A stretch of 64,000 nt of DNA, taken from contig OX442314.1 of the NCBI GenBank assembly GCA_949358305.1, positions 50,784,581-50,848,580 on the forward strand. The letters run 5' to 3'. A program made the position numbers and the translations under genes. Of this stretch, positions 7,013 to 44,700 are shown piece by piece. The notes beneath the pieces are model-generated. The model was not told where the DNA came from, searched no databases, and saw only the letters and a list, made by a program, of their open reading frames with translations. This stretch comes from Strigamia acuminata (Eukaryota; Arthropoda; Chilopoda; Geophilomorpha; Linotaeniidae). Within the stretch, counting starts at the first letter, position 1; every line of letters starts with the position of its first letter.

Positions 7013-10000
7013 ATGAGGATTGTGATGCGAAGGAATGCAGTTGGAGCTGCGGTAAAGTCTAAAATTCGTAAAATTGTACAACAACAAATGCCACAACTTT
7101 GGATGTTTGAGAAATCATTTCCCGAATTACAAACGTTAATTGATCCCATGAAAAGCGCTAAAATCAAATTTCTTTGGAGTTTACTTCTAATGAGCTGCCT
7201 CGCAGTCTGTTGCTATCAAACTGGGCAGAAAATCAAGTATTTCTTTTCAAACCCCATCGCTACTGACGCTTATACGAGAGACGCAACCAAGATGTCATTC
7301 CCACCTCTGAAAGTATGCACGCAAGAAAACACATACACACGACATGCGTGGAAACATTTTCTACACTCAACACCAAAAACTGTGCCCCAGTGTAGAGATA
7401 TTCTTTTGGATTTATTTGAAAATGAGAAAGTCAACATATCTGCATTATGGGATATTGATCAACCTGTATTAAACAAAACGGAATTTATTTCGGTAAGGAA
7501 ATCCTGATTTATTTTGCCAACTGAAATGTAAAACACTACCAGAGACTTCTTACAGAAATCTACGAACAAACCAAATATTCAAATAGGCAATGAATTGTCC
7601 ACATATGGAACCTGCGCTGTGATAACGGTTGGTAAGTTATGATCGACCATTAACTGCAATAAACTCCTACCATAGAGTCATTTGGTGTTTTCTAGAAAAT
7701 ATTACGGGTCGAAATTTATATGGCAAATTGAAAATGTGGTTCAATCGACCACAATTCTGTCCCCCAGGCATACTTTCAGTAAATATATTGACTACAATAA
7801 CAAAAGCAACATTCAAAAATTAAAATTTATTAAAACTATAGGTGTCAAGCCCTATTTCAGGTAGATCTGATATAGCACTCAGTGTGACTTCAAATCAAGT
7901 AATAAGAAGTAAATTTAGTTTAAAAGAGGTATTTATTATCACCATTTGATTAATTCCCCTACCATCTTCCCCAAGGTGTTACATTTGTTAAAAGAAACAA
8001 CCAAAAAAGCTAAAAATTTAGGAAAAATAGTCAATGTGCTGGAAAAAAAACTGATTTAGGGTCCTGACAAACAATGTTATATCTCCCCTCCCATCCAGAC
8101 AACTTCCTGGGACCCATCCTATGTCTTGGCTACAGAGTACAGCCATGAACTAAAGATAACATGTTCAGAGTGTTTTGCCACCAATGGCGCAACATATAGT
8201 CACACTGTATTCTGAGATACAAGTAACAAACATCCTTAGTTAGCAAGAAAGGCATGACATGTGATTGCGGTCATCCAATCACAATCAGCACACAAAACCA
8301 CGAATCAAAAGGAAATAACACACAGATAGGTATTCATGTAATCCTTGGTTCGTGGTACAGTGTATAAGGTACATTGCAAAAATTGATTATTTTTTTATGT
8401 GTAATTATAGTTTATATTTCTGAATACATCATCTAATCCATGCATTCACGAAAAGGATTTTATCAAATGTCACGAGAAATGCCTTCAAGATTTTTACAGT
8501 CAACAACCTTGCAGGTGAGAGATCACTTTACACACCGTAATAACCATTTAAAATGAATTTGAGAACGAGCACAATACTAATATGTAATTAAATATTATTG
8601 TTTATTCAGATTGCCATTTATGAGTGGAAAGACGGCCGACAACACATGCAATAATTCCCTCGGTACACTTAAGCTGTACGAAAGCATTCGGACTAAACTA
8701 CGGAAAATAAACTCAGAATTAAAGTGCTTGTGCAACCGAATGTGCACTCAAATAGAAGAGATAAAATTCTACACATCTAGTACAACGGATGCCCTGCTGA
8801 CAGAACGCGAAAACGAAGCAGCATCAAATGTTATTGAAGTCATCGAAGAAAGATTTGCTTATGGATTTGTCAATCTACTCATTGATGCAGCTGGAAATAT
8901 TGGCCTTTACCTCGGGATGTCGATACTTTCAGTTTTGGATTTGATCACATTAATCGTCAATTATCGAAAACGTAATGCAACGTCACGAAACAGTAGTACA
9001 ATTTGCCTCAAAGTATGGCATTATCTGCACAAAACAAAAAGCCATTTTTCATCCCTGCTGAAAGACAAAGAGCCAATTCCTTGCAGCAGTATTCAAAACA
9101 TATTGGAAAAGGTTGTTTATCTCGTCTGCACCTTTCTATTTCTGGTCATGATCTATTTCAAATTGATGACATACATGGCATATCCCATACGAGTAAACAT
9201 TGCAGTCGCGGACGAAGCAAATGTAACCTTTCCTAACATAACAGCTTGTGTAATGACGAATCCAACGACCATGGAATTGGAGAAGATGTATGCTGATGAA
9301 AATAATCTGAGTCAGAGTGATTGTCCCATTCACATGTTAAACCTACTAGATCTAAAAGAACAAAACCTCACAATAGAAGAACTATGGGAGCAATCTTCCT
9401 CTTCAGAAGCTATGATATTTCATAATTTCGTAAGTAGGATTATGCAACTTATCAGATAGTCATCTTATGAATGTTACCTTTTGGCAGGTACCGTTTTCAG
9501 ATGTTGAAATAAATACCCCAAAAGGAAAATGTACACATTACTTAATAGGTGTGTCATTAATTTCATTCTGCAGTAAATGATTGCCAAAATAACTTATTAT
9601 CCACCTTCCCATTGAGTGTTACAGTATTGGATGCAAACTTATTATTACAAGCGATACCTCCATACAAATAATTCCTTGTATTGAAAATTGTAGACAAAAT
9701 GCTATCGACATTTTTCAAAGATGAGTGAATAACAATTTAATTACAACTTTTCTTTTTGTCTAGATGAAACTCAGTACAATGGCCAAGCCACAATGCTTAT
9801 GAAATTTTACGAGGCTCCTACATCGATGTTATGTGACCAATACTACGAGGTAAAAAAAAAGCACATCAATCAGGCATTTAATTTCGTATGTTAATTGATT
9901 GTCATGTATCACTAAGTTTTTCATAACAACAAGAGAAGACCAAGATTTGGATTTGACTTCAAATGGATTGTTACCATTCGGAGGTGGCGTCTCAGTAGTT

Positions 10001-13000
10001 ATTGGGTATCGCATAATAAAGGTGAGAAACCTTGAACACGTCATACTTTAATCGAACACATCAAATGCTTCCAAACTCAAAAAGCCATTTTCCAGACTGC
10101 TTTTATACCGTTTTCCAAGCAAATAGTTTTTATGGGTCTAAAGTGTGAAAACTGGCGTTTTGGAAAGGGTTCACATTCCCTTTAATGCACCACTTTTATT
10201 ATCAGATTTTTTTGTAATATTTACATTTCACATTTGTTTACCTTTGATTAATTATATAGTATTTAGCGTTATCAACCCTTATTTTATATCTGATTAATAA
10301 ATTTAATGGGTTAAATTTCGTTTGTCATTTTGGTTTGGCTTCCGCTTCCCAACTATGGAATGTAGTTGAAGCAATTAAAGAATTAGTGTTTGCTCCAATG
10401 CCATGTTTAATGCCATGTTCACACTTGAACCACTCATCTACATAAGTACTCAACTTTTAGAAACTCTTGTATTCAAATTGTTCTAGTTTTCAACAAATCA
10501 GAACAAAATGGCGACTCTTCTACAACTTTAAATTGTAGAAGCAAATTCTATACTTCGTTCCGGTACAAGGTGGTCTTAATTCACTGGTGTAGTGGCACAA
10601 AAAAGTAGCGCTTAACACATTGTTTAATTGATTAAAAGGGGAAAAAGCTTATTTTTAGCAAATAAAATAAATATTTTATTACCAATTAAATAAAATCCAT
10701 ACCTTCTAATCACTTTTTACAGTTAAATTCATTGAAAATAAACAGAACTACTTTTCCGCGTAGACTTAACCCACCAGTGATAAGGCTGGAATTAAGACCA
10801 CCTTGTACTGGAACGGAGTATACAACTTTACTTCACAACTCTTAAGTCCCGCCGCCATTCTGTCATGTGACTAACCTTCGGAAAATTCAAAATAAAAGGA
10901 TGCCAATCTGACTTTCAGCATTAGAATAAAGTACTTTTAAATGCGTGAAAAAATTTATATAATACATCAAAAGACAGAGAATGAAACCAGCTTTATTTTT
11001 TAAAAAAGCACAAGTTTCTACCTCTAACAGTTGTTGAAATGCAAGCATGAATGCGTTTCAGTCGCATCAGTTGGAGTGGACCTTTGTTTCGGCCTCAAAA
11101 TCATCTGCTTTTAATGCAGAAAAAAATTACAAAATGTTGTTTTACTGAACTGGCATCTGTCTTTCTTTTTAAAAAAAAGAAGAGGTTTCTATCTTTAATG
11201 GTTCATTATCTACAAGTGGAAAAGCAAAACCCTACCTTTCAGTGGACAACATTTTGCCAGACATAAACAATCTCACTAGAGGTGCATTAGTTACTCCTAG
11301 TAAAAAAGTCATTGATTTCTACAAAACTATATTCTTATTAACTCCAAGATTAGCCTTTCTCCCATTGGCCTAGTCTCATTACTACTAACTGTAGACTGTA
11401 GTTTTATATTTTTTAAATTTCTGTGAGTGTTGTAATGATTAAAATGACATACTTTTAATTGTATTTTAGAATAAAATTATTAAATACAGTTTTATGCTGT
11501 TTTTAATTCAATTCACTTGACTGTTCAGTGTATTGATTGCTTTGTCTGGAAAGCAAACAATTTTGAATTTTTTGCTGTTACCTATAGGCAATCGATTACA
11601 ATGTAGGTACATCGATTGCAATTATGGTGTTTGGGTCCTATTTTGGTATCACTACACAAGTGAAATGGCTCGGCCAATAGAGGAAAAGCTAATCTTAAAG
11701 TTAACAAAAGTATAATCGCTAAGTGTGAATAGTCTTAAAATAGATCGTTCACACTTGGAGAAATTAAACTTTCTAAAAGTCACAACTTCCATAAAAGTGG
11801 TTCAAGGGTGAACTAGGCATTAGACAAAATAAAACTTCAACCCCAGTGAATACACAATCTTCATCGTGGACACTTGTTTAACCTTTTCTTCAACTTACAT
11901 TCCAACTTCGTAGACATGCGGTTGTCTTTCAATGACTGGCATTCCTGTCGTGCTTGCACGGGGATCTGTGTTGCCCCGTTAGGTCTGGTGTGTGGCTCTG
12001 TGCATCCCGGTTTTTCGGGGGGGGGAGATGTGACCGTTTGCCCACCCTAGTGGCCTACGTCACTCCACACACTGCCTAACGGCCCCAAGCCGTCCCCCTC
12101 TTGGAAGAGTGGACCAGCCTAGCAGGGGAGTTACAGAGCAGAGTGGTGTAGTGAGAGAGAAGACGTTGCTAAGGAAGCCGAGAGTGAAGACGTGCTAAGT
12201 TGCGCTGCCACGGTCCTAACAATGGTAGAGACAACTACCGACTCTGCTTTTCTCACCACTCACCACTGTGACGCTCAGTGGCAGATAAGGATGACTGCGG
12301 CAGTACCATGAGTGGCTGCATGGGTCGTACGGGTAAGTACGGCAGTGTTCGTCTGACGTGACCGACACGTCACCTATGGGGTTCCCACTCTGTGTGTGAC
12401 GGGTCGGTTGCCAATGTAGCGTGCTCAACGGCACTGCCACACAGTGAGATAGGTGACCCAACCCCTAGACAACGATTAAAGGCCATAACCTCACAATCTG
12501 AGTCCCTGTCTCGTTGTTACGTGAGAGATATGTGTCCTATCCCGTGTACTGAGTCCCCACAATACGAGGATAAGACCATACCCAGTCACAAGACTATTAG
12601 GAGCGTGATTAACCACAAGACTCAACATGAAAGAAACCTCAATCTCGACTATATTGTAAAGCAGGACCGTGCCGACCTACTTACCAAGGCATGGCCACCT
12701 GGCGGCTGCACCTTCGCCTCATAGGTCGGCACAACCCTGTTGTAAAACATAAGTTGTTAGGTCAAGAGAAATTTTCTTTTCAACAATTTGGGTTGGCATA
12801 AAAAAAACATTGTGTTATATGGAATAGCCTAGGTCCCAAAAAATGTGCCCAGTCCACACTCCACAAAATCCAGTTGGAGTAGTAAGAGCTTTGTTATCTG
12901 AACGAAGATTGATTGATTGAATCCTGGTCACTGTGTAATTGATACAAAAATATAAACTGAAATTTTTTTTTAATTTATTAATAGTTTGAGCGCATAAATA

Positions 13001-15856
13001 CACCAATACGAAAATGTATGCCACCAAACGATTTCTATCAGTGCAAAAAGCAATGTTACCGCAAAAAACTGAATGAAAAATTAACATGCCGGTATGTTTG
13101 TATTGACATACAGTATTATGCACCCAGTCATGAAAATATCAAAGTTCCTAAACCAAACATAAGAAAAAATATTTATTCACTTCTTTCACACAAATTCTAG
13201 TTATTGTTTTGGCAACAAATTATTCTCTCCCCATCTTTGATTGATTTTACCTCAAACTAAAAATATTGTTCTCCCCTGATATTTATTCTCCCGAATAATA
13301 GGTTTTACACCTCAACATTTTCCCCCCAATTATTGCCAAAGTACCCCAATTTTTATTTTTAGTTTAATTGTGAACACAATGCTTACTTAGCATTCGATGG
13401 GCATCCTCGATGGTGTTTCTGACCGATGGTACAGTTTTTGCCTCTGGTAGTAAGACAATTATATCTTGCAAATGCAAGATCTTGTACAATACATCCTTGC
13501 AAACGAGGAGCATGTCATTGTTTTCAATTTAGTCATGTCACAAATAATTTCTTGAATAGATATTGCTGCGATCCGGGAATATAACTAAAATCGGGGACTG
13601 ACGGCTGACGGCTGACGATTAGTCCATCCCCTTAAATCACTAAAATAAGCAGTTAACTCGCAGTTGAATGCCGTTGATAGGACTTACAATCAAATTTGGC
13701 TAAGTGTTGTCTAGGGGTTTTAATAAATGTGAAGTAAAGTTAAAATCAAATGAACAATACTTTAATCGATTGTAATTATACAATGGATAATAAATTACAA
13801 TAATGAAAAGCGACTATGTCGCGGAAATAATGAAATGTGAAAAGATGGCAAAAGCGCATAACAACAATTACGGGCAACACGCGAATGGCGTGTGCAACAA
13901 CGGCTTGTTGTTAAGATGGCGGCGACGTCTTCTCCTCTTCATTACTCACATGTATGATGGCGGTGACGGGAATTCCGGGCACGGTCAACGGTGGCTCCAG
14001 CGACAGCGATGGTTCACGACTCTTCTCCTCGACGGTAATGCGCGCAACAGCAGCGGCTGATACACGGGAACGCAAACAGGTGCTTGCTTTGCACAATTGG
14101 CGCAAAGCAAACGATGTCTTGAAACACACAAATAACGCTAACACTATCAATACTCCCTTTTTGGTAAGACAGAGCAGTGACGGGTGTGTTGTTGGTTTAG
14201 ATGTGTATTCAAGAATGTGCCAAATTCGTTGAGTTAAGTTTGGCACACTTCGGAGTTGCATAGTAAATCTGCGCAATTAGCTCAGTTTGGTGCAACAAAG
14301 GATTTTGTTGCACCAAAACGGTTAATTAGCCGTTCACCCCAGCCAATTTGGGGTGAAATGTGCTTGGGGAGTTTTCACCCCCCAGTCACATGACTGAGTC
14401 TGGCACAGGCCAGACTATTGTGAAATAAACCAAAACACAATCTTCTTTTAAGTGGTGATTTTTATTTAAACAAAACATCAAAATAAAGTGAGATCACCAC
14501 AATTGGGCATCCTGTTGAACATTGTGTATTTTAGCCGCCAATATGTCACCAACGAAAAGATAAACAAATGAGTGATAATGCGGCGGCAATACAGGCGGAC
14601 GTAGACATACAAGCGGTAAAAAGATCTATGGAAGTTGTGAACAACCAAGAAGTTCGATTCAGTTCGATTCATTTCAACCATGGAACACGCAAATGTCCAG
14701 TGTTTGCACAGATGTAGTACATTTGCAAGCTATTGTTGTCATACCACCAAAGGCAAAAACTGTACCTACCGATCAGAAACATCATTAAAAGCTATGAAAA
14801 CATTATATTTATAATAAAAATAAAAATTGGGGCACATTTAGCAATGTCTTTGGGTAAATATGTTGGGATGTGAAACTTTTAACCGGAGAAATAAACATTA
14901 GAAGAGCCGCCAATATGTCACCAACGAAAAGATAAACAAGCAAGTGCTAATGCGACGGCGATACACGCGGACGTAGACATAGAACCGGTAAAACTATATA
15001 TGGAAGTTGTCTACAACCAAGAAGTTCGATTCGAGCAAGAAATATTCAATTCAACCATGGAACACGCAAATGCCAAGCGTTTGCACAGATGTCATACCAC
15101 CAAAGGCAAAAACTGTACCCACCGGTCAGAAACATCACCAAAAGTTATGAAAACGTTATGTTTTACAATAAAAATAAAAATTGGGGTACATTTGACAATA
15201 ATTAAGGTGAATATGTTGGAATGTGAAATTTTTATTCGGAGAAATAAACATTAGAAGAGAACTATAGTTTTCTTGAGAGTTTTTTGAGTTGGGAGATTTT
15301 AAGTCGTTCTTGGGTGGAAAGTAAGTCAAAGATAGGAGGTTATTAGACTGTAACTTTCGGATCAATTTAATAGTGTTTAACAGAGCACACACATTTCACT
15401 TTGAATACCAAAGACAGATTTGTAAAATGCACAAATAAATCACTATGTAGATCATACTGTAGCTAACAAAATTTTTCTCTCTCCAGATTACCGTACATAG
15501 ACCAACTGCAATATCCCATGTGCAACACTTCTCAATCAGCGAAAACAACTGATTCTATCTACAAAAAAGCTTTTCTTGACACAAATGTTAAAGATGAATG
15601 TGAATGTCACATTCCCTGCAAAGAATCTAAGTACTCCAGCTTGGCACAACCTACACGTTCTGGTGTTACTCTAATGACCGCAATATTCCATTTTTTCGAA
15701 ACAAACAAAATTCAAATTTTTATTGACCGGCTTGAATATGACATTATCTCGTTCATATGCGACATCGGAAATATTTTAAGTTTATCGCTAGGTCTGTCAA
15801 TATTGAGTGTTGCTAGAAAAATGCAAAAACTAAATTTTCAACATCACCAACAATAA
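7013..15856 (+). CDS. Two-module (fused tandem) DEG/ENaC channel subunit, copy 1
   Basis: Eleven GT-AG exons join to an uninterrupted 792-residue protein: 7013-7492, 7556-7631, 7696-7778, 7842-7928, 8411-8514, 8610-9429, 9488-9548, 9764-9849, 9917-10021, 12985-13091, 15487-15856. Module 1: TM1 about residues 51-70 (IKFLWSLLLMSCLAVCCYQT), the post-TM1 MSFPPLKVC motif (FPAxTxC in the family), Cys-rich exon (PCIHEKDFIKCHEKC), TM2 about 362-394 with GNIGLYLGMSILS, whose G-x-S (GMS, 379-381) is the family selectivity filter. A cytosolic linker of about 50 residues leads to module 2: TM1 about 445-465, NVTFPNITAC, a matching Cys exon (FYQCKKQCYRKK), and TM2 with GNILSLSLGLSILS (GLS, 772-774). End phases of exons 1-5 (0,1,0,0,2) equal those of exons 6-10, so exon 6 fuses two ancestral genes. 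Module 2 TM2 is short: basic residues (ARKMQK) follow the filter at once. No HG motif is seen before TM1. Ion selectivity and gating are unknown. Confidence 0.9.
10549..10823. mobile_element. MITE-like foldback element with 33-bp inverted arms
   Basis: The left arm begins TATACTTCGTTCCGGTACAA and ends GGTGGTCTTAATT. The right arm, reversed, begins TATACTCCGTTCCAGTACAA and ends with the same GGTGGTCTTAATT. The arms differ at two positions in 33 bp, and TCACTGGTG continues the match inward after a short insertion. The central 200 bp is AT-rich and non-coding. Superfamily is not assigned because a target duplication is not clear. Confidence 0.7.
11935..12722 (+). mobile_element. LTR-retrotransposon remnant, possibly Copia-like
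   Basis: A purine run (CGGGGGGGGGAGA, about 12016-12028) directly precedes TGTGACCG. A block of about 190 bp from there ends CGGTCCTAACA near 12220, which has the look of a polypurine tract and a short LTR. Near 12600-12722 a frame reads HKTQHERNLNLDYI...ADLLTKA and then stops, recalling the H-x-T-x-H...ADxLTK end of Copia RNase H, though shortened. Stops interrupt the rest. GC content is clearly higher than in the surrounding intron. Confidence 0.35.
13564..14501 (-). mobile_element. Solo LTR of the 43-kb Ty3/gypsy family (copy A)
   Basis: A 938-bp unit from TGCTGCGATCC to GAGATCACCACA has the same termini (TG...CA) as the LTR at 43181-44140, in the same orientation, so it belongs to a minus-strand element. 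No internal gag-pol flanks it and I see no target duplication, so it is a solo LTR or deletion remnant. It sits in the last intron of channel copy 1. Between about 14289 and 14416 it has a run of stem-loops: GGTGCAACAAA/TTTGTTGCACC, TTCACCCCA/TGGGGTGAA and AGTCTGG/CCAGACT. Confidence 0.85.
14532..15262 (+). repeat. Tandem duplication of a ~375-bp intronic unit
   Basis: GCCGCCAATATGTCACCAAC starts at 14532 and again at about 14907. Each copy continues through GGAAGTTGT..ACAACCAAGAAGTT, ACCATGGAACACGCAAATG, CACCAAAGGCAAAAACTGTAC and GGAGAAATAAACATTAGAAGA. A single related copy lies in the matching intron of channel copy 2 (46370-46660). The second unit can encode MEVVYNQEVRFEQEIFNS..., but the frame is broken in the first unit, so I do not call a gene. 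Confidence 0.8.
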
Positions 15857-16508
15857 TATCATTCAGATGGGTTTTCACATTAATGTCAATACTTTAAGTT
15901 TATCACTAAATCTGTCAAAGTGTCAATATTGAGTGTGGCAAAAATACACCAAATAAATTGTTTTAATGTTCAGAAAAATATCATAATCTGCTCATAATCT
16001 GCTCAGATTTACTTACGTTTTTAAATATTATCTATTTGTACACATCAATATGTTATAGCAATCGCTGTAATTGCACTAAAAATTGAGTGATGCAACTTAA
16101 TTCATACAATTCTAACCAAATAATAATGTATGTTACTTCAATTCTCAAGCACCAAAATTTGGTACCAGTATACCATTTTTTTGTAGTAATTATCTAATTA
16201 ATCTCAAATCTGAGTGATCTAAGTATCCAACGAATTTCATACAATTGTATCTCCAATTTACTCATGCACAATGGCAATTATATGTCATCTTAGCAATAAA
16301 TGTTGTTACCTTAAGGCTAGTCCAATTTAATTAAAGTAAACTAGTAATTCAAAGAAAAAATATTAGGGAGAGGGCTTGACCCCTACGCCCGGTCTAGTCC
16401 GAGACCTGATCTCCAGTCCAATTTTACTAGTACAAGTGGACACACGTGTTTTTTTACTTCTAATTTTTAAAGTAAATTTTTCACACTTTTAACCAAAAAA
16501 CACTCGCG

Positions 16509-16694
16509 ATGGACAATATTCAGACGGAATCTACTGGAAGAAAAAATCCAAAACGAGTTAAGAGCGTTTCCAAATCCAAAAACGCTCGCCCAGCACGTCC
16601 CAGGAGAAAAAGGTTCTGCAGAATTCTGCTTGTTGTGCAGAAAAATTTTCTTCAGAAAAGGACAGGCGATCCTCTTTGCCCAGGATATTTTTGA
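16509..16694 (+). pseudogene. Truncated copy of the unknown ORF found at 47,908
   Basis: The first 30 codons (MDNIQTESTGRKNPKRVKSV, then SKSKNARPAR) match the ORF at 47908 nearly residue for residue, as does the 170 bp upstream. After the CAGCACGT at about 16596 the two sequences part: the frame here ends after a different basic stretch (FLQKRTGDPLCPGYF). The breakpoint marks the right edge of the segment shared by the two channel loci. Function unknown. Confidence 0.5.
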
Positions 16695-29757: not shown

Positions 29758-32700
29758 ATGAGGATTGTGATGAGAAGGAATGCAGTTGCAGCTGCGGTAA
29801 AGTATAAAATCCGTAAAATTGTACAACAACAAATGACACGACTTTGGATGTTTGAGAAATCATTTCCCGAATTACAAACGTTAATTGATCCCATGAAAAG
29901 CGCTAAAATCAAATTTTTTTGGGGCTTACTTCTAATGAGCTGCCTAGCTCTCTGTTGCTATCAAACTGGGCAGAAAATCAAGTATTTCTTTTCAAACCCC
30001 ATCGCTACTGACGCGTATACGAGAGACGCAACCGAGATGTCATTCCCAGCTCTGAAAGTGTGCACGCACGAAAACACATACACACGACATGCATGGAAAA
30101 ATATTTTACACTCAACACCAAGAAATGTGCACGAGTGTAGAAATATTCTTAGAAATTTATTTGAAAATGAGAATGTCAACATATCTGCATTATGGGATAT
30201 TGATCAACCTGTATTAAACAAAACTGAATTTATTTCGGTAAGGAAATCTCGACTTCTTTTGAAAACTCAAATGTAAAACACAACCAGACTTCTTACAGAA
30301 ATCTTCGGACAAACCAAATATCAAAGTAAAGAATGAATTGTCCAGTGATGGAACCTGCGCTGTGATAACGGTTGGTAAGTTATGATCAACCATTAACTGC
30401 AATAAACTTCTATCACGGAGTCATTTGGTGTTTTCTAGAAAATATTACGGGGCGAAATTTATACGGCAAATTGAAAATGTGGTTCAATCGACCACAATTC
30501 TGTCCCCCAGGCATACTTTTAGTAAATAAATTGACTACAATGACAAAACAACTTTCAAACATTAAAATTTATTAAAATATAGGTGTCAAGCCCTATTCCA
30601 GGTAGATCTGATGTAGCACTCAGTGAAAATTCAAATGAAGAAATAAGAAGTAAATTTAGTTTACAAGAGGTATTTACCATCACCATTTGTTTAATTCCCC
30701 TACCGTTTTCCCCAAGGTGTTATATTACACACACTTTAGGGGCCTGACAAGCAATGTCACATCCCCTTTCCCATCCAGACAACTTCCTGGGACCCGTCCT
30801 ATGACCGGGCTACAGAGTGCAGTCATGAACTAAGGATGACATGTTCGGAGTGTTTTGCTTTGCCACCAATGGCGCGACATAATATATATATAGCCAAACT
30901 GTATTCTGGGATGCAAGTAACAAACATCCTTAGTTAGTACGAATGCACGACTGTACATCCAATCATCCAATCATCCAATCAGCACACAAAACCATGAATC
31001 AAAAGGAATTAACGCGTGGATACATGTCCATGTAATTCTTGGTTCATGGTACAATTTATAGGGTACATTGCAATCTTGATTATTTTTTTACGGATGTAAT
31101 TATAGTTTATATTTCTGAATACATCATCTAATCCATGCATTCACGAAAAGGATTTTATCAAATGTCACAAGAAATGCCTTCAAGATTTTTACAGTCAACA
31201 ACCTTGCAGGTGAAAGATCACTTTACACACAGGAATAACCATTTAAAATGAATTTGAGAACAAACACAATACTGATGTAATTAAATATTATTGTTTATTC
31301 AGATTTCCATTCATGAGTGGAAAGACGAGCGACACATGCAATGCTTCCTTTGATACACATGAGCTGTTCAATAGAATTCGTAAAATACTACAGAAAATAA
31401 ACTCAGAATTAAAGTGCTCGTGCAACCGAATGTGCACTCAAATAGAAGAGATAAAATTCTACACATCTACTACAACAGATGCCCCGTTGACAGAACGCGA
31501 GAACGAAGCAGCATCAACTGTTATTGAAGTCATCGAAGAAAGATTTGCTTATGGATTTGTCAATCTACTCATTGATGCAGCCGGAAACATTGGCCTTTAC
31601 CTCGGGATGTCGATACTCTCAGTTTTGGATTTGATCACATTAATCATCAATTATCGAAAACGAAATACAACGACACGGAACAGTAGTAGAATTTGCCTCA
31701 AAGTATGGGATTATCTACAAAAGACTAAAGGCCATTTTTCATCCCTACTGAAAGAAAACGAGCCAATTCCTCGCAGCTGTGTTCAAAAAATGGAAAAAGT
31801 TGTTTATCTCGGCTGCACCTCTCTGTTTCTGGTCATGATCTATTACAAACTGATGACTTACATGGCATATCCCATACGAGTAAACATTGCGGTCGTGGTT
31901 GAAGCAAATGTAACCTTTCCTAACATAACAGCTTGTGTAATAACGAAGCCGACGACCATTGAATTGGAGAATATGTATGCTGATGAAAATAATCTGAGTC
32001 AGAGTGATTGTCCCATTCACATGTTAAGCCTACTAGATCTAAAAGGAGAAAACCTCACAATAGAAGAACTATGGGAGCAATCTTCTTCTTCAGAAGCTAT
32101 AATCATGAATGATTTCGTAAGTATGATTATGCAACTTACCAGATAGTCATCTTACAAATGTTACCTTTTGGCAGGTAAAGTTTTCAGAAGTTGAAATAAA
32201 TACCCCAAGAGGAATATGTATACATTACTTAATTGGTGTGTCATTAATTTCGTGCTGCAGTAAATCATTGCCAAAATCATTTTCATTCATCTTCCCATTG
32301 AGTGTCACAGTATTGGAAGCAAACTTATTACAAGCGATTCCTCAATACAAATAAATCATAAATCATAAATCATAAATCATAAATCAGGAATGAATTCAGG
32401 ATTCAGGATTCAGAAATGAATTCAGGATTTAGAATTTATGATTCAGGAATGAATTCAGGATTCAGGATTCAGAAATGAATTCAGGATTCAGGATTCAGAA
32501 ATGAATTCAGGATTTAGAATTTATGATTCAGGAATGAATTCAGGATTCAGGATTCAGTATTCACAATTCAGAAATGGATTCAGGATTCAGAAACAAATTC
32601 AGGATTCAGTATTCACAATTCAGAAATGGATTCAGGATTCTGTATTCAGGATTCAGGATTCAGAAACAAATTCAGGATTCTGTATTCAGGATTCAGGATT

Positions 32701-35700
32701 CAGAAACAAATTCAGGATAATGATTTCTGGATTCAGGATTCAGGAGTGAATCCTCTGCATATTTTCAGGATGTATTGAATTTTTATGGAAATTTCTAGAG
32801 ATTTATTTTGAGATTTAACTAATGTAGAATTTTTATTAAAAAAGAAATATGAAATTTTATATTTGGAAAGTTGTTATTTACTGATAAGAAACTCATATTT
32901 TACATTTGGAAATCTTAACTTTACTGGTTGAGAAATATGTGTTTAGCTGTTTGGAAATTTAATATATCATGCTATGAAAAGTAGTTTGGAAACGGTTGCA
33001 TTCAGTGTTGGAAAGTCATTGGAAGTTTGATGTTTGTACAATTTGGAATATATAACTTTCGGGTTTGGAAATATCGCATTTCAGTTAAATTTCCAAAATA
33101 TTTTATTTTTTTTGCAGTGATATGGCAATCCCATAAAATTTATTCGATCATCCCCATGAAAATAATTAGAGCAATTATGAAAATAATTCGGGCAATTATG
33201 AAAATAATTCGGGCAATTATGAAAATAATTCGGGCAATTATGAAAATAATTCGGGCAATTATGAAAATAATTCGGGCAATTATGAAAATAATTCGGGCAA
33301 TTATGAAAATAATTCGGGCAATTATGAAAATAATTCGGGCAATTATGAAAATAATTCGGGCCATTATGAAAATAATTCGGGCAATTGTGAAAATAATTCG
33401 GGCAATTGTGAAAATAATTCGGGCAATTGTGAAAATAATTCGGGCAATTGTGAAAATAATTCGGGCAATTATGAAAATAATTCGGGCAATTATGAAAATA
33501 ATTCGGGCAATTATGAAAATAATTCGGACAATTATAAAAATAATTCGGGCAATTGTGAAAATAATTCGGGCAATTGTGAAAATAATTCGGGCAATTGTGA
33601 AAATAATTCGGGCAATTATGAAAATAATTCGGGTAATTATGAAAATAATTCGGGCAATTATGAAAATAATTCGGGCAATTATGAAAATAATTCGGGCAAT
33701 TATAAAAATAATTCGGGCAATTATGAAAATAATTCGGGCAATTATGAAAATAATTCGGGCAATTATAAAAATAATTCGGGCAATTATGAAAATAATTCGG
33801 GCAATTGTGAAAATAATTCGGGCAATTATGAAAATAATTCAGGGAATTATGTAAATAATAAAAAATTAAATTTTAAACTTTGTATTTTAAAATTTTAAAT
33901 ATTTTGATCCCATGCACCTTATCACTCAAAAGTTTTTTTTCTAAGATTTGACAGATAAATTTGGGGTACATCTTATTGTGTAACTCATTTTATCGTCCAC
34001 TTCTTGCTGCGCTCTAATGGGCTGCTGCTCGTAGCAAGTCCATTGTGGTCCAAATGACTCACTGAAAAATGGCCGGAGCTGTAGGCTACTAACTCCAGCC
34101 GGCAAGCGAGGAACATATCCATGTGCGGGCAAGCGGCTAGCGTGTCCAGGCACGAGCACGCTAAAGTCGGGAGAGATATCACTGACAACACGACGCATTG
34201 CGTATGGAGTGGCGGGGTTGTCCACTTTGTAAGTGGACGCCGTTCGGCCACTGCGTGCGGACGTGAAGGTCGCGTCCGATTCAACGCTCTGGGAGGACGA
34301 GGAATAAGACGATTCCGGAGTTCGTCCTCTTCGCGACGGTGGACGATTTGGCGGTACGTCCGTGGTGTAGGGGCGCGATCGCTTCTGCCGTTCCTCTCGA
34401 TCGCGGCTGGATTCTCGTCGCTGTGGTCCAGTGCTTGATCCAGCGGGAGGGAGTCGTCCCACCCTCAAATCCTCGTCTTGCGGCGCTGGATTGATCGGCG
34501 TTGGGGCCGGAATTTCGTCTGCTGGGTAGAACGGAAGAGCAAGACGCGCTTGCTCGTCTGCCTCGAGTTGACGAGTCAGTTGTTGATTTTCATCGACCAG
34601 GAGCTGCGCGGCGGCAGCTCGGAGCGCTTTTGACGGGAAAAACCCCGGAAAGTCATTAAAGCACCGGGCGAGCGCCAATTGATGGAGTTAGGTTTGTGTG
34701 GCGGGAAATTGCGGCTTCCCGTCACGAACGGACTTTCGGTACCGTTGTATGACCTCGCGTTGAGTCGTCTTGAGGTTTTTCCTCAACTGGGTAAGGGCGC
34801 CGTAATTAATGCGGCCGCCCTTGATCACCTTTCGGCGATCGTAACGCTCTCGCGGCGTTACTGGCCACTGGTTGTGCAGCAAGTCGGAAGCGACTTGTCC
34901 TGGAGCGCTGTCTTCTAAGGTCCAGGTGACTTCATCGACTCCCGGGACGCGAAGTCGGTCGATAAATCGGCCCTTGGCTCCGAGGCCTTGGAGGGAGGCC
35001 CCTGAAAACTCGTGACGCAATTTCCACCACGTTATCCGGTCCGTCTTAAGTCTTCGGATCTTTTCGGGCAGCGCCGCCCGAAATATCAGCGGATGCTGTG
35101 TCGGTACGTGATCCGTGAGCGCGTGAGGCGTCTCCCGATCTCTCTCAATCTAGAGGGAAAAAATAAATAAAAGAGATTAATTTATTTAATAATTTGCAAA
35201 CAATTTCTCGTTTGTAATTATTTAAGCTCGACGCTTGTGGCTGTGAACCACTAAGGGATGTCGGTTGCTATGGCAACTCCCTTCGCACATGCTTGAAGCA
35301 CGTGACTTTTATAGCCGCCATTTTTAACTTGTAGCGGCTCGTGTTTGATGTCACAAAACTTGACTTTGCTCAAATTTCGTGACTGAAACACTTGATAAAA
35401 ATATTTTTAATAAATTACCCGTTGTTGGAGCGTTAACTGGACGGCTCCGTTTGCCTCGTCCATCGGCATTTCATCATCTGGATGAAGATTGACTTCGTCG
35501 TCCGCCATTCGCTTGCGTTTCCTCGATAGATCGGGAATTCTTTCGTCTTGAAAGAAATATTATTGCAATTAAATGCCAATAAATTAATTTTTCATTGAGA
35601 AAAATTACTTACAGTTTGAGAAATCGCTGAAAACTGTGGTTCGATATACTATCCGACGCATCCACTTTGAAAACTCTAGAAAAAGTGGCTAAGTTCGTTG

Positions 35701-38700
35701 ATTGGAGAAACGAACTTGTCTTAGAGACGCTGTATGACGTCATTCATTATAACGCCTTATAGACGTCGTCATCGAATAGCGGACTATTGATGACGTCACG
35801 AGTTCGCTCCCGTGATCCTTTTGGGAACTTTCAAAAGGTGAAATCAAAGTTATTTCTCGCCTCGCGGAACGCGGGGTCGCAAATTGTACTTTGATTTCTT
35901 CGAAGAACAATCCAGTTTGTTTAGATTGTCATCTGAGTCGTCTTGAGTGTCAGATGAGTTTTCTTTATTCTTTCTTGAAGTTACATCTTCTAAAAATATT
36001 TCTTTTTCTAGATTTTCATCGAGAGAAACATTTTCAAGTCGTTTATCGATTACAGCGACTTCGTCATTTTTTGGTTTCGATATTTCAATCGATTTCGATT
36101 CCGTGTCAATAGGAATTTTGGACAACTCTGTGTCATCCAAAGTATTTACGATGTTTTTCGTTTTTTGACCTACTTCTTCCCCTTCCAACCAAATTTCTTG
36201 GTTGAATTTAGGAAAATACGGCTGTAGTTCGGTGCCGTGGACTGCTGGATAATTTTTATTATCAGCTAGTCGATGAAATTGAAAGGCGCCACCTTGCAAT
36301 CTTTTTACGATTACGTATGGCCCTGTTCTCTTCGGAGAAATACCTGCAGAAATTCCTTTTGCGGCATTTGAGAGAATATGTGACTCTCTCCAGACTAAAT
36401 CATTTTGTCTGAAATTATCGAATTTTTTGTCTGATTTTTCAGCATCGACTCGACGCCTTAAATCCAAAACATGAGACATCATATGTTGATATGTCTCCGC
36501 GATAATTGCTTCTAATTTCTGCACATACAAGTGCGGATTTTTTGGGTCAATAACCAAAATTCCGTCGGGAATCCTTGGATCCCACGGAATACGTAATTCT
36601 CGGAAAAAATTCAAGAAAGCAGGAGAGTAATCTCTGCCCCTTGTTACAGTCATTCGGAGACTGAATGCAAATTCGCGTAGATATTCATCCCATTGGTCGT
36701 GAATATCTAAATAAATCGAAACCATATATTTAATATCCCTATTTGTTCTTTCCACAGGGTTCGCCTGCGGATGGTATATTGATGTCGTTTTTGGTGACAT
36801 TCCGAATTTTTTGCAAAATTCTTTATAGACCAGTGATCGAAATTGTGGTCCATTATCACTTATAATTTGTCTTGGAAAACCAAAAGTTATTGATAAGTGA
36901 TATATGCAATTAGCAACTTTAATTGCGGTCGGATTACACATTGGAAATAATTCCGGCCAATGTGTAGCTATATCAAGTATTACACAAATATGCGTGTTAT
37001 TCTTTCTAGTCCTTGGCTTTGGACCAGACAAGTCAACGCTGAGGCAGTCAAAAGGTCCGTAAGGTCCCATTTGAGCAGCCTCCATTTCTGTTTTCGATCT
37101 AGGCTTGCATGCTTGACATCCTTGGCAATGCTGAATAAAGCGAGTTATGTCGCGTTTCATGCCTTTCCACGTGTACACTCTTCGAGTTCGGTACATAGTT
37201 CGTGCTATACCTGGGTGACCAGATAAGGGATGTCCGTGCATCAACCAAATGATTTTATAAATCAATTTCTTGGGTACTACAACTTTGAGTGCCCTACCAT
37301 CCTCTCCTAATTCATCGGTGGAGGTAGGATGATAATGAAGTAACATATCGTCTTCAATAAGGTAAGTACTTGCTACTCTTTTGAAATGATTTTTGTTTGG
37401 AGCATTGTACAGATACTCTGGGTATATTTTATTTACAATAAAATTACGAATTATTTGACAGAATTTATCTTGTTTTTGTGCCTCAATAATGTCGTTCCTC
37501 GTTGGAGGATCGCAGTCCAATTGCTTAGCAACTTTGGCTGCAAATGCTTTGATTAAAACATTAGTTGTTGGCAACTCGAATTGTTTAGCCATCATAGTTC
37601 TTAACTCGATATCAGGTGTCCCTGATGGATCATGAATTTTGTGACAAAAAGCGACAATATTATTGTCTTCTTCATTTACTATGATCGACTTGGGCAACTC
37701 GTTCAGTTTTCCCATTTGCCAACTTCGGCAAGGAGATGGACAATACGACAATAAGTCATCGTTATCACCATCATCTTCTGGGTCGTCAGGTGCACTTACT
37801 GGTGCACGAGACAATGCGTCTGCGACAACATTTAATGGCCCTTTCACGTACTGAATTTCGAATGAATACGCCATCAGCTCCATTTGCCAACGAGCTAATC
37901 TGCCAGACGGGTCGGCTAACGACATCAACCATTTCAAGGCTTGGTGATCCGTTTGTACAGTAAATGTTGTGTACTCTAAGTATGGGCGAAATTTGCGTAA
38001 TCCCCATACTACTGCGAGACATTCTAACTCTGTCACAGTATAATTCTTTTCAGCGGGTTGCAAGCTTCTGCTTGCATACACGCATGGCATCTCTACATCT
38101 TCGCCATCCACAATCTTCTTTTGTGTGAGGGCTGCGCCCAAACCTTGCCTGCTGGCATCAGTGTGAACAATGAAGGGCGAATATAAATCCGGCATCTTCA
38201 TTGTTTCAGCGTTCGTAAGCAGATCTTTGATTGCATCAAACGCTGCCTGATGGTGCAATTCCCAGTCGAAATCTGCATCCTTTTTCAAGAGTGGCCGTAG
38301 TGGTTCTGCCACTGTGGCCAAATTCTTGATTAGGCGATGGAAGAAATTTACCATGCCTAGAAATCTCTGCAGCTCCTTCAAATTTGTAGGAGCGGGAAAT
38401 TCAGTGATGGCGGCGACTTTTTTAGGGTCGACGCTGAGTCCATTGACTCCTACTTTGTATCCCAGGAAGATTAATTCCTTTCTACACAAATGAGTTTTTC
38501 CAGGGTGGGCATGCAAATTTGCTTCTTGCAGCTTGGCAAAAACTATATCCAAATGTTTGACGTGTTCCTCAAACGATTTGGACACGACGATTATATCGTC
38601 CAGGTAAGCCCAGGCGAACTTACGGTAAGCGTCACCTAAAACTTTTTCCATCAACTCTTGGAAAGTGGTAGGCGCGTTTACAAGTCCGAAAGGCATTACT

Positions 38701-41700
38701 TTAAACATAAGCCTTCCCATTGGACTCCAAAAAGCCGTTTTGACTTTGTCTTCCTCACGAAGCTCTATCTGCCAATATCCCTTGGTCAGATCTATCGTAC
38801 TAACCCACTCGAATTCACCGATTTCTCGCATGATTTCCTCAATAGTTGGCATTTGAGGGGGGTTGTACTTAGTATGTGTATTGATTGGTCGAAAATCGAT
38901 ACACAGACGCGGGTCATTGCCTGGTCGCATGACTAAGACAGGCCGCATCCCGTAATCACCTTCAGCTTTGACGACTATGTCTTTGTCAATCATATCTTGA
39001 CAAAGCTGTCTGATAATTTCTCTTTTTTGAGGGTTTATGCTCTTGAAGGGGACGCGGATGGGTTTGTCCGTGTCTAACTCAATCTTGTGTTGAACTAAAT
39101 GAGTTTTGCCTGGCTTTTTAGAAATGATCTTTTTATGTTTGATCAACATTTTTTCTAATAATTTAGATTGCTCCAAATTTAAGTTAGCTTCTTCCACTAA
39201 CTTCTGGATGAAATTCTCTTCATCAATTTTAGTTTGAGTTACACTTGCAGCATAAGCTTTTGCGAAAGTCACAAATGAGGAATCTGGTTTCTCTAATTTT
39301 TCAATATATCGGTCTAACAACGCTTGCGGAATGTAAGGTAAATCTGCATCCACAGGTTGCAAGAAATTCCACGACATCGTCTGTGGATTAGGTTGGATTC
39401 CTAGTTTATTCATGAAATCGCAACCCAAAAGTACCATTGGATACTTGTTTGGTATCACGATGAACGGATGACGTAATGTGCCATGAGTCCACCGAAATGA
39501 AAGATGGATCGTCCCATCTGGAGTGACTTCTTCACTTGCTGTCCTAACTCGAACTCCTGGTCCGATAGGTCGCATGTACTTTTCAAGACCTAATTGATTG
39601 ATAACGGAAGTCGCAAGGAAGCTCTTATTTGCTCCCGAGTCTAACATTCCAGTTATAACTCCTTTCAACGTTTCTAATTTTAACGTTGGGAGATCTTGGC
39701 TGTTGGGAATACCAGCCACTTTGCACTCAAACTTGCGCAATTTAGAAGGCATTGCAATTGGAGGTTCCAATGGCAATTCATCTAATAACTCATTGCTTTC
39801 AAGAGTTGTAGCTGCAAATAACTTTATGCATTCCTCAATTCCAGGTGTTTCCGGAACTGAGCTTGGTCTATCGACTTCTGTCTGCATATTGGAATCATCT
39901 TTTGTCAGATTTTCACTGACAACCTCCTTTTTTAATTCTGGAGATTCGATATTTTTTATATCTTCTGGAAGAAATGCTTCATCCAGAATAGTTTCAACTT
40001 TTTCCAATAATTTCAGAACTTCATTTTCCGATTCCGATTTCGGGGGGGACGCAGGATCCACTAGACCTGATGGATCTGCGTCTACAAGTTTTTTGCGAAT
40101 AAATCCATCAAAACTTTTACTGCTTTCTCAAACTCAGCTGGCGTTACTGGTTTGTCTTTCTTTGTAGCAGTGGGGCGATCTCTTTGCCAATGTCCCAACT
40201 TTTTACATAAGTTGCAGGGATCAGTAGAAGGTGACTTCTTTTTCGTACCTGCTGGTGAAGCAGAACGAGAACGGGTGTCTGAGCGACGCTCAGGTGATGC
40301 TGCAGGTGATTTTGAATTTCTATCTTTATTCACCTTGTCAGTATTGAATGAAACTGTTTTGGGCTTCATTCGTGGCTTCCATTTGCCAGCAACTGTATTA
40401 TTTTTAGCTAATAATGCAGCTGTTTTGGCCAATAAAGCCAATGTTTCATCTTCTCCTTCTCCCTCTTCTTCAGCTTCTTCAGCGTCAGAGGTCGGACTTT
40501 CAGCTCCTGCTACATTTGCACGTAACTTCGGAACGGAATGAGGATTGTTTACCTCTTTTTTAGAAGAATCTTTTTTCGACTTCTTCTCTTCCATTTCGTC
40601 TAGTATATCTTCGTAACTAGGGGGAAGCATCAATTGCAAACCATTGCAGGTTTCGTGATTTTTCTCAGCCAGCTTTTTCTCTCGCTGTAGGAAAGCTGAC
40701 CTTTCAGCGTCAGTCAAGTATGCTTTATACTTTTCTTCAATACGAAGTTGATTGACTTCCATAAATTCATTTAATTCTGAGAATTTCCCAGGGTCTGGTG
40801 CGTTAGACATCATTAGAATATTTTTTGAATATTCGTTGAGACCAGCACGAAACTGATCGTCGGCAGTTGCATCGGTTACTTCATGAGGCACCCTGCCAAG
40901 CAGATTCTCTGCCCTAAGCATGTACGAATGTAAGCTTTCGCCTTTTCGTTGCTTTAAGCTTCTCCAAAGCATTTTGATGTCTTCGCTTGATTTGCCAAAC
41001 TTAAACATAAATTTAGTAACGAAGTCATCCCACTTCGTGAAGTTTCGACGACGAAACCATTCTTTGACGTCTCCGACTAGCATTTTTGGTACTAGATGGT
41101 CTAGAGCGCTTTCACAACCGAAATTGTGCTCTTTGCCTAATTCAAATACTTCTAGTAAGAAATTGGACCCTGCTCGCCAGGATCCATTATAGGCACGAGG
41201 GATTACTCGATCCCATCGAATAAATCTATCCTCAGTCGCTCTATGAGTCCACTTGTCGGATGTGAACTCGCTGATTTTTTGCAAAATGACTTTATCTCTT
41301 CTGTCCTTTTGCTGATAACCGACATTCTGTCGTAGAAGTTGGTCAATCTCAGCTTTCGTGTAAAAAGCTTGGTTCGGGCTTCTGCCACGCGTTCTATGAC
41401 GCGAGCGCCCTCTCACACTTGGGTGTGAGGAGTCAGTATCAGACGCTGACTCGTGATTCGCAAAATTTGGCGGTGGATCGGGGTCAGGAGGATCGTTATC
41501 ATTTGGTGGACGTCGATCTCCATCTGGTGGTCCCCTTCTACCATGATTGCCATTCGAATTGTGGCCACCTGAGTGGCCACCGCCATGCCCATGTGGGTCG
41601 TCCCCTCCAGGCGGATCTCCGTCTGGTGGACCTCCACGATATCTTGGTCCGTCACGAATGTCTTCGGGACATCCACGTTTGGACGAGCCATCTCGCGGAT

Positions 41701-44700
41701 TATCATGTGCTCGGCCATGATCACGTGATTCCTCACGCTGTTTGTTCTTGTTAGCCAACATTCCGATTAATCGGTCACTGTTGCTAAAGAATTGGTCCGT
41801 ATTCTGTGAGGCCTTCGGCGGGTGATATTCGGTCGGGTCCGGTTGTCGTTTTCGCTTCTTGCGACCATGACGGCTGCCACGGCTGCTACGACTACTTCGC
41901 GAGTCATCACTATCGGTCCAACTGGACTGGCGACTGAGCTTCGACTCAGTTGAATTCAAATTAATCAACGAAGGTGATTTTGGAGCACCTTTTTGCAAAA
42001 CTGGGTTTGGTTTCGCAAACATCGAATCACTTGAGGTAGCTTGCACACGTTGCACAACTTCCTCGAATTCTTCCTGTGCTTTTAATAAATCGGCACGAAG
42101 AATTTCGTTTTCCCGAGCTTGGGCTGCTAAGTCGGCACGCAATAACTGCTCTGCAGTGCTCAGACTTCTAGCATTTTGACCAGCGTCAATTACTGACCGC
42201 TGTTGAGCGAGAAATAATTCATTTTCTCGCTGAGCTAATCTCTTAGCTCTGGCTGCCTGTTCTACCGAACATTGATCTAGCTGTGGAGAAGAAGGGTTAA
42301 CTTGCTTCTGTTTAGCTTGCGAATTTAATTCGGCAGTCATGAGATTGGAATTTGCAATTCTCAAATTCTCATTAGCAGTTTCTAAATCTTTTTTAGCTTG
42401 ATTTAGCTGCTGTTGCATCTTTTGATGCTCTTCGTCAGTTATTAGCCATGAAGCCTTTTCCTGCTCGAAGTTTAGCAACTGCACATGATCGTGTGCGCGT
42501 TGTCGCTTGAGTTCTGCATTTTGCTGTTGTAACTCAGCATGTTGCCTCTCGAACTCTATTTGTAAGCTAGTCTTGAGCGTTTCGACTGCTTTTTGGCTAT
42601 GTTTTTCAACCATTGCCACGTGGAGTTCTTCCACTGTCATCTCATCGATGACTTCCACTCCGGCAAGCCTAGCTTGCTCGCGAAGTGCGTCCATCATTGT
42701 GACACGCACCGGAGAAGAAGAAACCTCCGAGTCGGGCGGTTCTCTACCTTGCAGCGGCAAAGGTGAGGAGTGCATCGAATGTTCGGCACTTGATGATTGA
42801 ATTTGCGTTGATGCATTCAAATCATCTTTGTGTTGCTTGGAATAGCCGCTTCCAGTCGGAATATTCAAATTCGACTGGCCGTTAAACGGTTGCGACGTTT
42901 GTTCTTCCAAACACGGCGTGCCGTCGTTCACGCTCACAGTTTGATCCATGGCTTCAAACTGTTCTTCAATCGCTGGAACTTCAGGATCCACGACTTGTAA
43001 TTCGATCGCCAATCGTTTCTTCGCTGGCCTCCCTCTTGGTCTCTTTTCGCTTGGAGTCGCCATTTTTCAATGAAGACAGAGAAAGGAAAGATAAGAAAGA
43101 CAAGCAAGATAAAAATGGCGGGTAAATTTTAACTGACAAAATTTTATACAATTGAAATATATCCCGGACGGGCCCCCACGTGCTGCGATCCGGGTTTTTT
43201 CACACTTAATTTCTATTAAATCAAGTGGAAACCGCAGGTGAATGCTTATAAAGACTTACAATCGGCGGCCGTAAATTATCTAGGGTTAATTTAATTAGAA
43301 AGAAATAAAGAGACAGTTTTATTAGTTAAAAATCACACTTTATATTCTTTATTCGGTTTTATACAATGACTAGTAATGAAAGAAAGTAATACGAAGCGAC
43401 AATGTCGCGAAATGAATGTAAGAACAATGGAAATGCTTGCAACGACTGTTGCAAGCTAAAAGCGTCAGAAATGGCGCTTAACAACACGAATGTTGTTACG
43501 AAGGCAAATGTCCTCGTTAAACGACTCACGAACGATGGTCCTGGCGACGATGGGTCTCGTAAGTCCTTCCGTAACTCGTACGACGGCTCGCTGGCGGTGG
43601 TTCACGGTCACGGGCGTCCGACTGGCGTTCGATGGCGGTGGCAACAGTTCGCGCTGCTGCGACGGCGATGGTTCACGTCACTTCGGGAAACTTCTTCTCG
43701 ATAGCTTAATTTAGCAACGGCTAAATCAAGCTGAATTGCTGGCTTTGTACGTTTCTTGTACAAAGATAGCAGGTGAAACTAATCGTGTCACGGTCCACTG
43801 TCAATACGTATTGTCGGAGCAAATATCGCAGTGATGTTGTGGGTTGTGATGTTGTGATTAGAGTCCCGATTGAAGCTAGGGCGCGAGCCCGGCACGCTTC
43901 AATATTGCGCAGATAATCTGCGCAATTAGCTGAAACTGGTGCAACAAAGGATTATTGCCCAATATTGCACCATAACGGTTAATTACCGTCTTTCACCCCA
44001 GCCAACCTGAGGTGATATGTGCCTAGGGAAGTTTCCTCCCCTTCGTCACATGATTCGACTTGGCGTGTGCCACAGTCAAATTAATTAGAAGACACAATTA
44101 ATTTATCTTCTAAGTTGGTGAAATATTTGAGATCACCACAAACAATTTCATCACAACTCCTCTTTTTGTCTAGATGAAACTCAGTACAACAGCCAAGCCT
44201 CAATGCTTATGAAATTTTACGAGGTTCCTACATCGATGTTATGTGACCTACACTACGAGGTAAAAAAAGCACATCAATCAGACATTTAATTTCGTATGTT
44301 AATTGATTGTCATGTATCACTAAGTTTTTCATAACAACAAGAGAAGACCAAGATTTGGATTTAACTTTAAATGGATTGTTACCATTCGGAGGTGGCGTCT
44401 TAGTAACTGTTGGGTATCGCATAATAAAGGTAAGAAAACTTGAAGACGTCATACTCTTGGTTGGCATAAAAAAAACATTGTTATATGGGATAGCCTAGGC
44501 CCCAAAAAATGTGCCCAGTCCACACTCCAACAAAGTCCAGTCGGAGTAGTAAGAGCTTTGTTATCTGAACTAAGATTGATTGATTGAATCCTGGTCAGAG
44601 TGTAATTATTACAAAAATATAAACTAACAAATATTTTTTTAAATTTATTAATAGTTTGACCGCATAAATACACCAATACGAAAATGTAGGCCACCAAACG

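What the first reader, a model, noticed from the sequence alone, without database searches (positions are those of the whole stretch)
7013..15856. A single gene encodes two complete DEG/ENaC modules in one chain
Eleven GT-AG exons give 792 residues with four membrane segments, two post-TM1 FP..xxC motifs, two Cys exons and two G-x-S filter motifs (379-381 and 772-774). Known DEG/ENaC subunits have one such module and assemble as trimers. A natural two-module chain poses a stoichiometry problem: three modules per pore must come from 1.5 chains, from pairing with a one-module subunit, or from a six-module assembly.
Basis: partly seen in the sequence, partly recalled or inferred. Interest (0 to 1): 0.9.

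Follow-up and report, generated by a model that had tools for sequence, protein, structure and literature searches.

The report
Natural two-in-one sodium-channel subunit gene
An animal genome carries, in two neighbouring intact copies, a gene that fuses two complete sodium-channel building blocks into one protein, although channels of this family are known to be built from separate blocks, so how the fused chain fits into a pore is an open, testable question.

Summary
Eleven GT-AG exons (7013-15856, +) give 792 residues with GxS motifs at 379-381 and 772-774. Each half alone scores above the Pfam cut-off for PF00858 (54.3 and 52.2 bits, cut-off 23.6), and each aligns nearly end to end with the 421-residue centipede channel PDPNaC1, a homotrimer of one-module subunits. 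Both halves have five introns at matching places with the same phases, 0,1,0,0,2. The fusion lies inside one uninterrupted exon.

At the non-coding indel rate about 33 coding indels were expected; two isolated ones were seen, both of 3 bases. This makes an assembly error or decayed pseudogene very unlikely and says the fusion predates the gene duplication.

The modules differ at pore positions, so the chain is a pre-linked heterodimer. Most likely it fills two places of a three-module pore, the third coming from another subunit or chain. Transcripts, relatives and assembly could not be tested: protein search was off, genome search unreachable.

The parts
7013..7492 (+). Gene A exon 1: start codon, N-terminus, TM1 of module 1, FPPLKVC
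   Evidence: aligned exon in copy B
7556..7631 (+). Gene A exon 2 (module 1 ectodomain)
   Evidence: GT-AG, phases 0 in / 1 out
7696..7778 (+). Gene A exon 3 (module 1 ectodomain)
7842..7928 (+). Gene A exon 4 (module 1 ectodomain)
8411..8514 (+). Gene A exon 5 (module 1 Cys exon)
8610..9429 (+). Gene A exon 6, the fusion exon: end of module 1 ectodomain, TM2 of module 1 with GMS, 51-residue basic linker (residues 394-444), TM1 of module 2, FPNITAC
   Evidence: one open frame of 820 nt; other frames 14 and 23 stops
9488..9548 (+). Gene A exon 7 (module 2 ectodomain)
9764..9849 (+). Gene A exon 8 (module 2 ectodomain)
9917..10021 (+). Gene A exon 9 (module 2 ectodomain)
12985..13091 (+). Gene A exon 10 (module 2 Cys exon)
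15487..15856 (+). Gene A exon 11: end of module 2, TM2 with GLS, stop
29758..32235 (+). Gene B exons 1-7 (29758-30237, 30299-30374, 30439-30521, 30583-30669, 31106-31209, 31303-32116 fusion exon, 32175-32235)
32236..44173 (+). Gene B intron 7 (11,938 bases), enlarged by a retroelement with reverse transcriptase, RNase H and integrase domains on the minus strand and by tandem arrays
44174..47261 (+). Gene B exons 8-11 (44174-44259, 44325-44429, 44655-44761, 46892-47261)

Best explanation
SHOWN: a gene with two DEG/ENaC modules joined in frame inside one exon, present as two diverged intact paralogs. INFERRED, very likely: it makes one chain with four membrane segments, both ectodomains outside and a basic cytosolic linker of about 50 residues. 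INFERRED, most likely mechanism: the chain is a built-in heterodimer of two unlike modules. Module 1 has the more ordinary pore residues; module 2 is a divergent, modulatory one. The chain fills two neighbouring places of a three-module pore, and the third place is taken by a separate one-module subunit or by one module of a second chain. The fusion then fixes the pairing and the order of unlike subunits, as engineered ASIC dimers do.
For: Two independent PF00858 matches. Each half aligns nearly end to end with PDPNaC1 (47-393 vs 35-396; module 2 query numbering 35-381 vs 40-395), which is a homotrimer. Five introns per module with phases 0,1,0,0,2 at alignment columns 168/163, 193/193, 223/225, 260/260, 295/295. 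Copy B: 790 aa, 674 of 792 columns identical, 10 of 10 introns GT-AG, no stop or frameshift. Coding indels between copies: 2 isolated ones, both of 3 bases, plus one compensating +8/-8 pair, in 2365 aligned bases, against 37 in 2633 non-coding bases of which 33 are not multiples of 3; about 33 expected, Poisson P 2e-10. dN/dS 0.62, bootstrap 0.45-0.87; Fisher P 0.006 on rounded counts. Linker residues 395-444: substitutions by codon position 8, 1, 11, binomial P 0.003 for one or fewer of 20 at position two. In copy A no Met lies between Met380 and Met457, which is inside TM1 of module 2, so module 2 has no start of its own in exon 6. Linker 10 K/R against 3 D/E, fitting a cytosolic side. Pore map against PDPNaC1: module 1 D369, G372, N373, G375, G379-M-S, D387; module 2 D762, N765, I766, S768, G772-L-S, R780 (residues checked; matched by my reading and the paper's numbering). 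Engineered ASIC1a dimers give currents (PMC4529235, passages) and a cASIC1 dimer assembles with labelled monomers (PMC8341984, passages).
Against: No transcript or protein evidence. No one-module partner was found in the window (tblastn), and the rest of the genome could not be searched. Selection is moderate: dN/dS 0.62 overall and 0.81 and 0.76 in the two ectodomains. Splice-like sites lie inside exon 6: a donor-like site at 9012 (3.9 bits; true donors 3.6-9.3 leave-one-out) and an acceptor-like site at 8933 (6.3 bits in A, 4.3 in B; true acceptors -8.0 to 9.3), which an alternative first exon could use to make module 2 alone. The choice of a mixed three-module pore over a six-module assembly rests on pore-residue reasoning and analogy, not on a model.
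Confidence: 0.6

Rival explanations
1. Six-module twin pore: three chains assemble, the three first modules form one pore and the three second modules a second pore, tied by three cytosolic linkers.
For: Stoichiometry is whole (three chains, six modules). The linker of about 50 residues could span neighbouring trimers (inference). The two modules differ enough (75 of 363 residues identical, 21%) that each might prefer its own kind.
Against: A ring of three module-2 helices would put Arg780 where PDPNaC1 has Glu390, and Asn765, Ile766 and Ser768 in place of Gly375, Ser376 and Gly378, a poor cation pore by analogy. No family member known to me does this (recalled).
Confidence: 0.13
2. The two modules work as separate proteins: alternative transcripts or proteolysis in the linker split the product.
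For: No RNA data. A donor-like site at 9012 and an acceptor-like site at 8933 are both present in copy B too, and copy B has a Met at 440 just before TM1 of module 2. Engineered ASIC1a concatemers show lower bands read as cleavage or incomplete synthesis (PMC4529235).
Against: No stop in the linker of either copy and no Met for module 2 in copy A. The one linker indel keeps frame, and linker substitutions spare second codon positions (8,1,11). The AATAAA and ATTAAA found in exon 6 of gene A (8706, 8718) lie at residues 309-313, before TM2 of module 1.
Confidence: 0.15
3. Two chains form a four-module pore, so that the even module number is no problem.
For: One study of crosslinked ASIC1a argued for tetramers at the cell surface (PMC4529235, passages).
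Against: The nearest solved relative, PDPNaC1, is a trimer by cryo-EM, and the same study cites trimeric ASIC crystal structures.
Confidence: 0.04
4. Chance read-through of two tandem genes: a recent loss of stop and intergenic DNA, or an assembly artefact, without function.
For: Tandem duplication happens here: gene B lies on the same strand about 14 kb downstream of gene A.
Against: The same fusion is in two copies that differ at 7.3% of coding and 8.4% of non-coding aligned bases and have different insertions, and the reading frame is kept throughout.
Confidence: 0.04

Closest known systems
PDPNaC1, proton-gated DEG/ENaC channel of the centipede Scolopendra (PDB 9jf7; PMC12714832: outline with abstract, and sections 9, 10 and 13)
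   Same: Each module aligns with it nearly end to end (27-28% identity for the gene A modules). 11 Cys columns, one of them in TM1, are shared by it and all four modules. It also lacks the His-Gly motif.
   Different: One module per chain, homotrimer. The modules here share two further Cys columns that it lacks (C127/C207, C515/C594). Module 2 departs at Gly375, Ser376, Gly378 and Glu390.
BRTNaC1, broad-range thermal receptor 1 of myriapods (PDB 8ymr; PMC12804983: outline, abstract and opening lines only)
   Same: Short DEG/ENaC subunit (431 residues), next-best solved match, there by the second half of the chain.
   Different: One module per chain; its strong match covers only about the last 150 residues.
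Engineered ASIC concatemers (PMC4529235 and PMC8341984, passages)
   Same: Two DEG/ENaC subunits head to tail in one chain, functional or able to assemble with monomers.
   Different: Made in the laboratory from copies of one subunit (in PMC4529235 with a short artificial linker); here it is natural, with two unlike modules and a linker conserved in two paralogs.
Two-module channels of even symmetry, such as two-pore-domain K+ channels and two-pore channels (recalled, no call)
   Same: An ancestral one-module subunit doubled in one chain.
   Different: There two chains complete a four-fold pore; three-fold DEG/ENaC pores do not divide by two.

Membership tests
DEG/ENaC (Pfam PF00858, ASC) | Profile match above curated cut-off | tested here: met
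   Whole 96.5 bits, module 1 alone 54.3, module 2 alone 52.2, cut-off 23.6
DEG/ENaC (Pfam PF00858, ASC) | Two membrane segments flanking a Cys-rich ectodomain, per module | tested here: met
   Hydrophobic segments and Cys columns in both modules
DEG/ENaC (Pfam PF00858, ASC) | FP....C after TM1 and GxS in TM2 (first motif recalled) | tested here: met
   96 and 484; 379-381 and 772-774
DEG/ENaC (Pfam PF00858, ASC) | His-Gly motif before TM1 | tested here: not met
   No HG in either chain; PDPNaC1 lacks it too and is still counted as a member, so it is not decisive
DEG/ENaC (Pfam PF00858, ASC) | One module per chain | tested here: not met
   Two modules in one frame in genes A and B; this is the finding, hence 'variant' and not 'plain member'
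DEG/ENaC (Pfam PF00858, ASC) | Trimeric cation channel | not testable with these tools
   No multimer prediction or expression possible
Short myriapod-type DEG/ENaC (PDPNaC1, BRTNaC1) | About 420 residues, near end-to-end alignment, shared cysteines | tested here: met
   Met against PDPNaC1; against BRTNaC1 only the last part aligns strongly
Short myriapod-type DEG/ENaC (PDPNaC1, BRTNaC1) | No knuckle domain | tested here: inconclusive
   Length fits, but the only structure model made (exon 6 piece) has mean pLDDT 40.5 and is unusable

The most novel reading that the evidence does not exclude
Three chains build a six-module, twin-pore channel: a conducting pore of first modules covalently tied through three cytosolic linkers to a second, modified or non-conducting trimer of second modules. 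This would be a quaternary architecture unknown, to my knowledge, for DEG/ENaC.
Probability: 0.12. Interest if true: 0.9.

Novelty: new variant of a known kind. Interest (0 to 1): 0.66.

Why it matters
DEG/ENaC stoichiometry and subunit order have been argued partly from artificial concatemers. A natural concatemer, kept in two paralogs, would show that evolution uses the same trick and lets stoichiometry be read from a native protein. If the chain fits a three-fold pore, it must use a partner, a spare module or a double trimer; each is a testable answer to how an even module number is reconciled with an odd symmetry.

Tried and rejected
Rejected readings: (1) missing exons in short modules: both align nearly end to end with a 421-residue solved channel. 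(2) Exon boundaries with mismatched phases for exons 3-4 and 8-9: solved by acceptors at 7842 and 9917, which give phase 0 in both modules. (3) Pseudogene or assembly error: made very unlikely by copy B. (4) A recent internal duplication: the gene A modules share 21% with each other and 27-28% each with PDPNaC1, so the duplication is old, or two old paralogs were fused. The shared introns and two shared extra Cys columns favour a common ancestor with this layout, but I could not tell which.

Led nowhere: AlphaFold2 of the exon-6 piece (two sequences) gave mean pLDDT 40.5 and was not used. Viral contigs held no relative, nor did genome contigs (bacteria and archaea). Pfam on nine neighbouring ORFs gave one match above cut-off (DUF6570 at 16471-16899), four ORFs with matches below cut-off only and four with none. 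Paper searches listed no natural two-module DEG/ENaC; I judged this from listings, which showed 20 of 33 and 20 of 497 papers, so it is weak evidence of absence. Passages of PMC7738191 and PMC3866589 were seen and gave nothing used here. Reference databases may hold automatically annotated proteins with two ASC domains; I could not look.

Full report
What is there. The + strand of the window from 7013 to 15856 holds an 11-exon gene (gene A). Ten of ten introns are GT-AG and the spliced frame is 792 codons plus stop. My first attempt at exons 4 and 9 had wrong acceptors; the corrected acceptors at 7842 and 9917 give phase 0.

Two modules. Pfam-A finds PF00858 in the whole chain (96.5 bits) and in each half alone (54.3 and 52.2; cut-off 23.6). 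The best solved relative is PDPNaC1 from a centipede, 421 residues. Module 1 covers its residues 35-396 and module 2 its residues 40-395. The next-best solved relative is BRTNaC1, described as a myriapod channel; its strong match covers only about the last 150 residues. So the modules are short but full-length for this kind. PDPNaC1 is a homotrimer that lacks the knuckle domain and the His-Gly motif (sections 9 and 10 of PMC12714832). No HG pair occurs in either chain here.

The modules are homologous by gene structure as well. Each has five introns, at alignment columns 168/163, 193/193, 223/225, 260/260 and 295/295, with phases 0,1,0,0,2 in both. Residue identity is low: 75 of 363. In a five-sequence comparison module 1 and module 2 of gene A share 71 of 333 aligned residues, against 91 of 328 and 91 of 337 with PDPNaC1. 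Eleven Cys columns, one of them in TM1, are common to PDPNaC1 and all four modules; two more (C127 and C207; C515 and C594) are in all four modules but not in PDPNaC1. The duplication is therefore old; whether a gene doubled and fused at once, or two long-separate paralogs fused, is not settled.

The joint. Exon 6 (8610-9429) carries the end of module 1, its TM2, a linker (residues 394-444, 10 K/R and 3 D/E) and TM1 of module 2. Its frame has no stop, while the other two frames have 14 and 23. Gene A has no Met between 380 and 457, and 457 lies within TM1 of module 2. Gene B has one at 440.

A second copy. Its intron 7 is 11,938 bases and holds tandem arrays and, on the minus strand, an ORF with reverse transcriptase, RNase H and integrase domains in the order of Gypsy elements (the order rule is recalled). 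Gene A instead has a 2.7-kb insert in intron 9 that B lacks. Over the aligned blocks non-coding bases differ at 8.4% and coding bases at 7.3%.

Frame is guarded. Over 2365 aligned coding bases there are two isolated indels, both of 3 bases and both in exon 6 (one in the linker, at residue 440), and one compensating +8/-8 pair in exon 11 that I read as an alignment artefact. Over 2633 non-coding bases there are 37, of which 33 are not multiples of three. About 33 were expected in coding sequence. dN/dS is 0.62, bootstrap 0.45-0.87, with more synonymous than non-synonymous change per site (Fisher P 0.006 on rounded counts). For linker residues 395-444 the substitutions fall 8, 1, 11 on the three codon positions; one or fewer of 20 at the second position has probability 0.003, with the caveat that I chose the stretch. 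By module dN/dS is 0.60 and 0.64; the two ectodomains are at 0.81 and 0.76, close to neutral; the linker alone is 0.51 with a wide bootstrap range, 0.17 to 1.9. Selection on residues is moderate; the frame evidence is the stronger part.

Pore residues. PDPNaC1 has gates at Asp372 and Gly375, a proton-block site at Ser376, a selectivity site at Gly378 and GAS at 382-384. By the alignments, module 1 has Asp369, Gly372, Asn373, Gly375 and Gly379-Met-Ser, with Asp387 where PDPNaC1 has Glu390. Module 2 has Asp762, Asn765, Ile766, Ser768 and Gly772-Leu-Ser, with Arg780 at the Glu390 place. In PDPNaC1, Gly378Ser altered ion selectivity, and module 2 has Ser there naturally. These residues are the same in copy B (alignment), apart from the middle residue of GxS in module 2 (Val for Leu). 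Module 2 thus looks like a divergent, modulatory subunit; that is inference.

How it may work. One chain with unlike modules is a covalent heterodimer. Engineered ASIC1a dimers, trimers and tetramers gave currents (passages of PMC4529235; that paper argues for a tetramer, so a four-module pore of two chains is kept as a minor rival). A cASIC1 dimer assembled with labelled monomers (passages of PMC8341984). By analogy the natural chain most likely gives two modules to a three-module pore and takes the third from elsewhere. A six-module twin pore and a split product are the main rivals. None of these was tested.

Limits. The nearest solved relatives are myriapod channels, which suggests an arthropod but does not prove it. 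AlphaFold2 on the exon-6 piece was unusable (mean pLDDT 40.5). Splice-like sites inside exon 6 leave alternative transcripts open: a donor-like one at 9012 and an acceptor-like one at 8933, both present in B; the score matrices were trained on only ten sites each, and true acceptors score from -8.0 to 9.3, so these scores separate poorly.

Novelty. Paper searches listed no natural two-module DEG/ENaC; these were listings, partly capped, of open-licence papers only. I rate it a new variant of a known kind.

Noticed in passing
29758-47261: A second intact copy of the two-module gene, 85% identical, with its intron 7 enlarged to 11,938 bases.
   Followed up: yes
15888-15936 and 47293-47333: A degenerate repeat of up to 41 bases of the TM2-coding end lies in the 3' flank of both copies.
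   Followed up: partly
10048-12790: A 2.7-kb insert in intron 9 of gene A that is absent at the matching place in gene B; it holds short inverted repeats.
   Followed up: partly
35850-43066 (-) and 52608-59813 (+): Two retroelements of Gypsy type: reverse transcriptase, RNase H and integrase matches in the ORFs 35850-40127 (-) and 56505-59813 (+), each with a long gag-like ORF beside it (read; 40082-43066 matched no Pfam family).
   Followed up: partly
16471-16899: A 142-aa ORF with a DUF6570 match above cut-off; an ORF at 47872-48339 lies in the matching stretch downstream of gene B.
   Followed up: no
20338-21282, 33156-33859, 45362-45690: Long tandem arrays of 27, 21 and 30 bases.
   Followed up: no
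residues 127/207 and 515/594 of gene A: Two extra Cys positions shared by all four modules but not by PDPNaC1, a possible extra disulphide.
   Followed up: no
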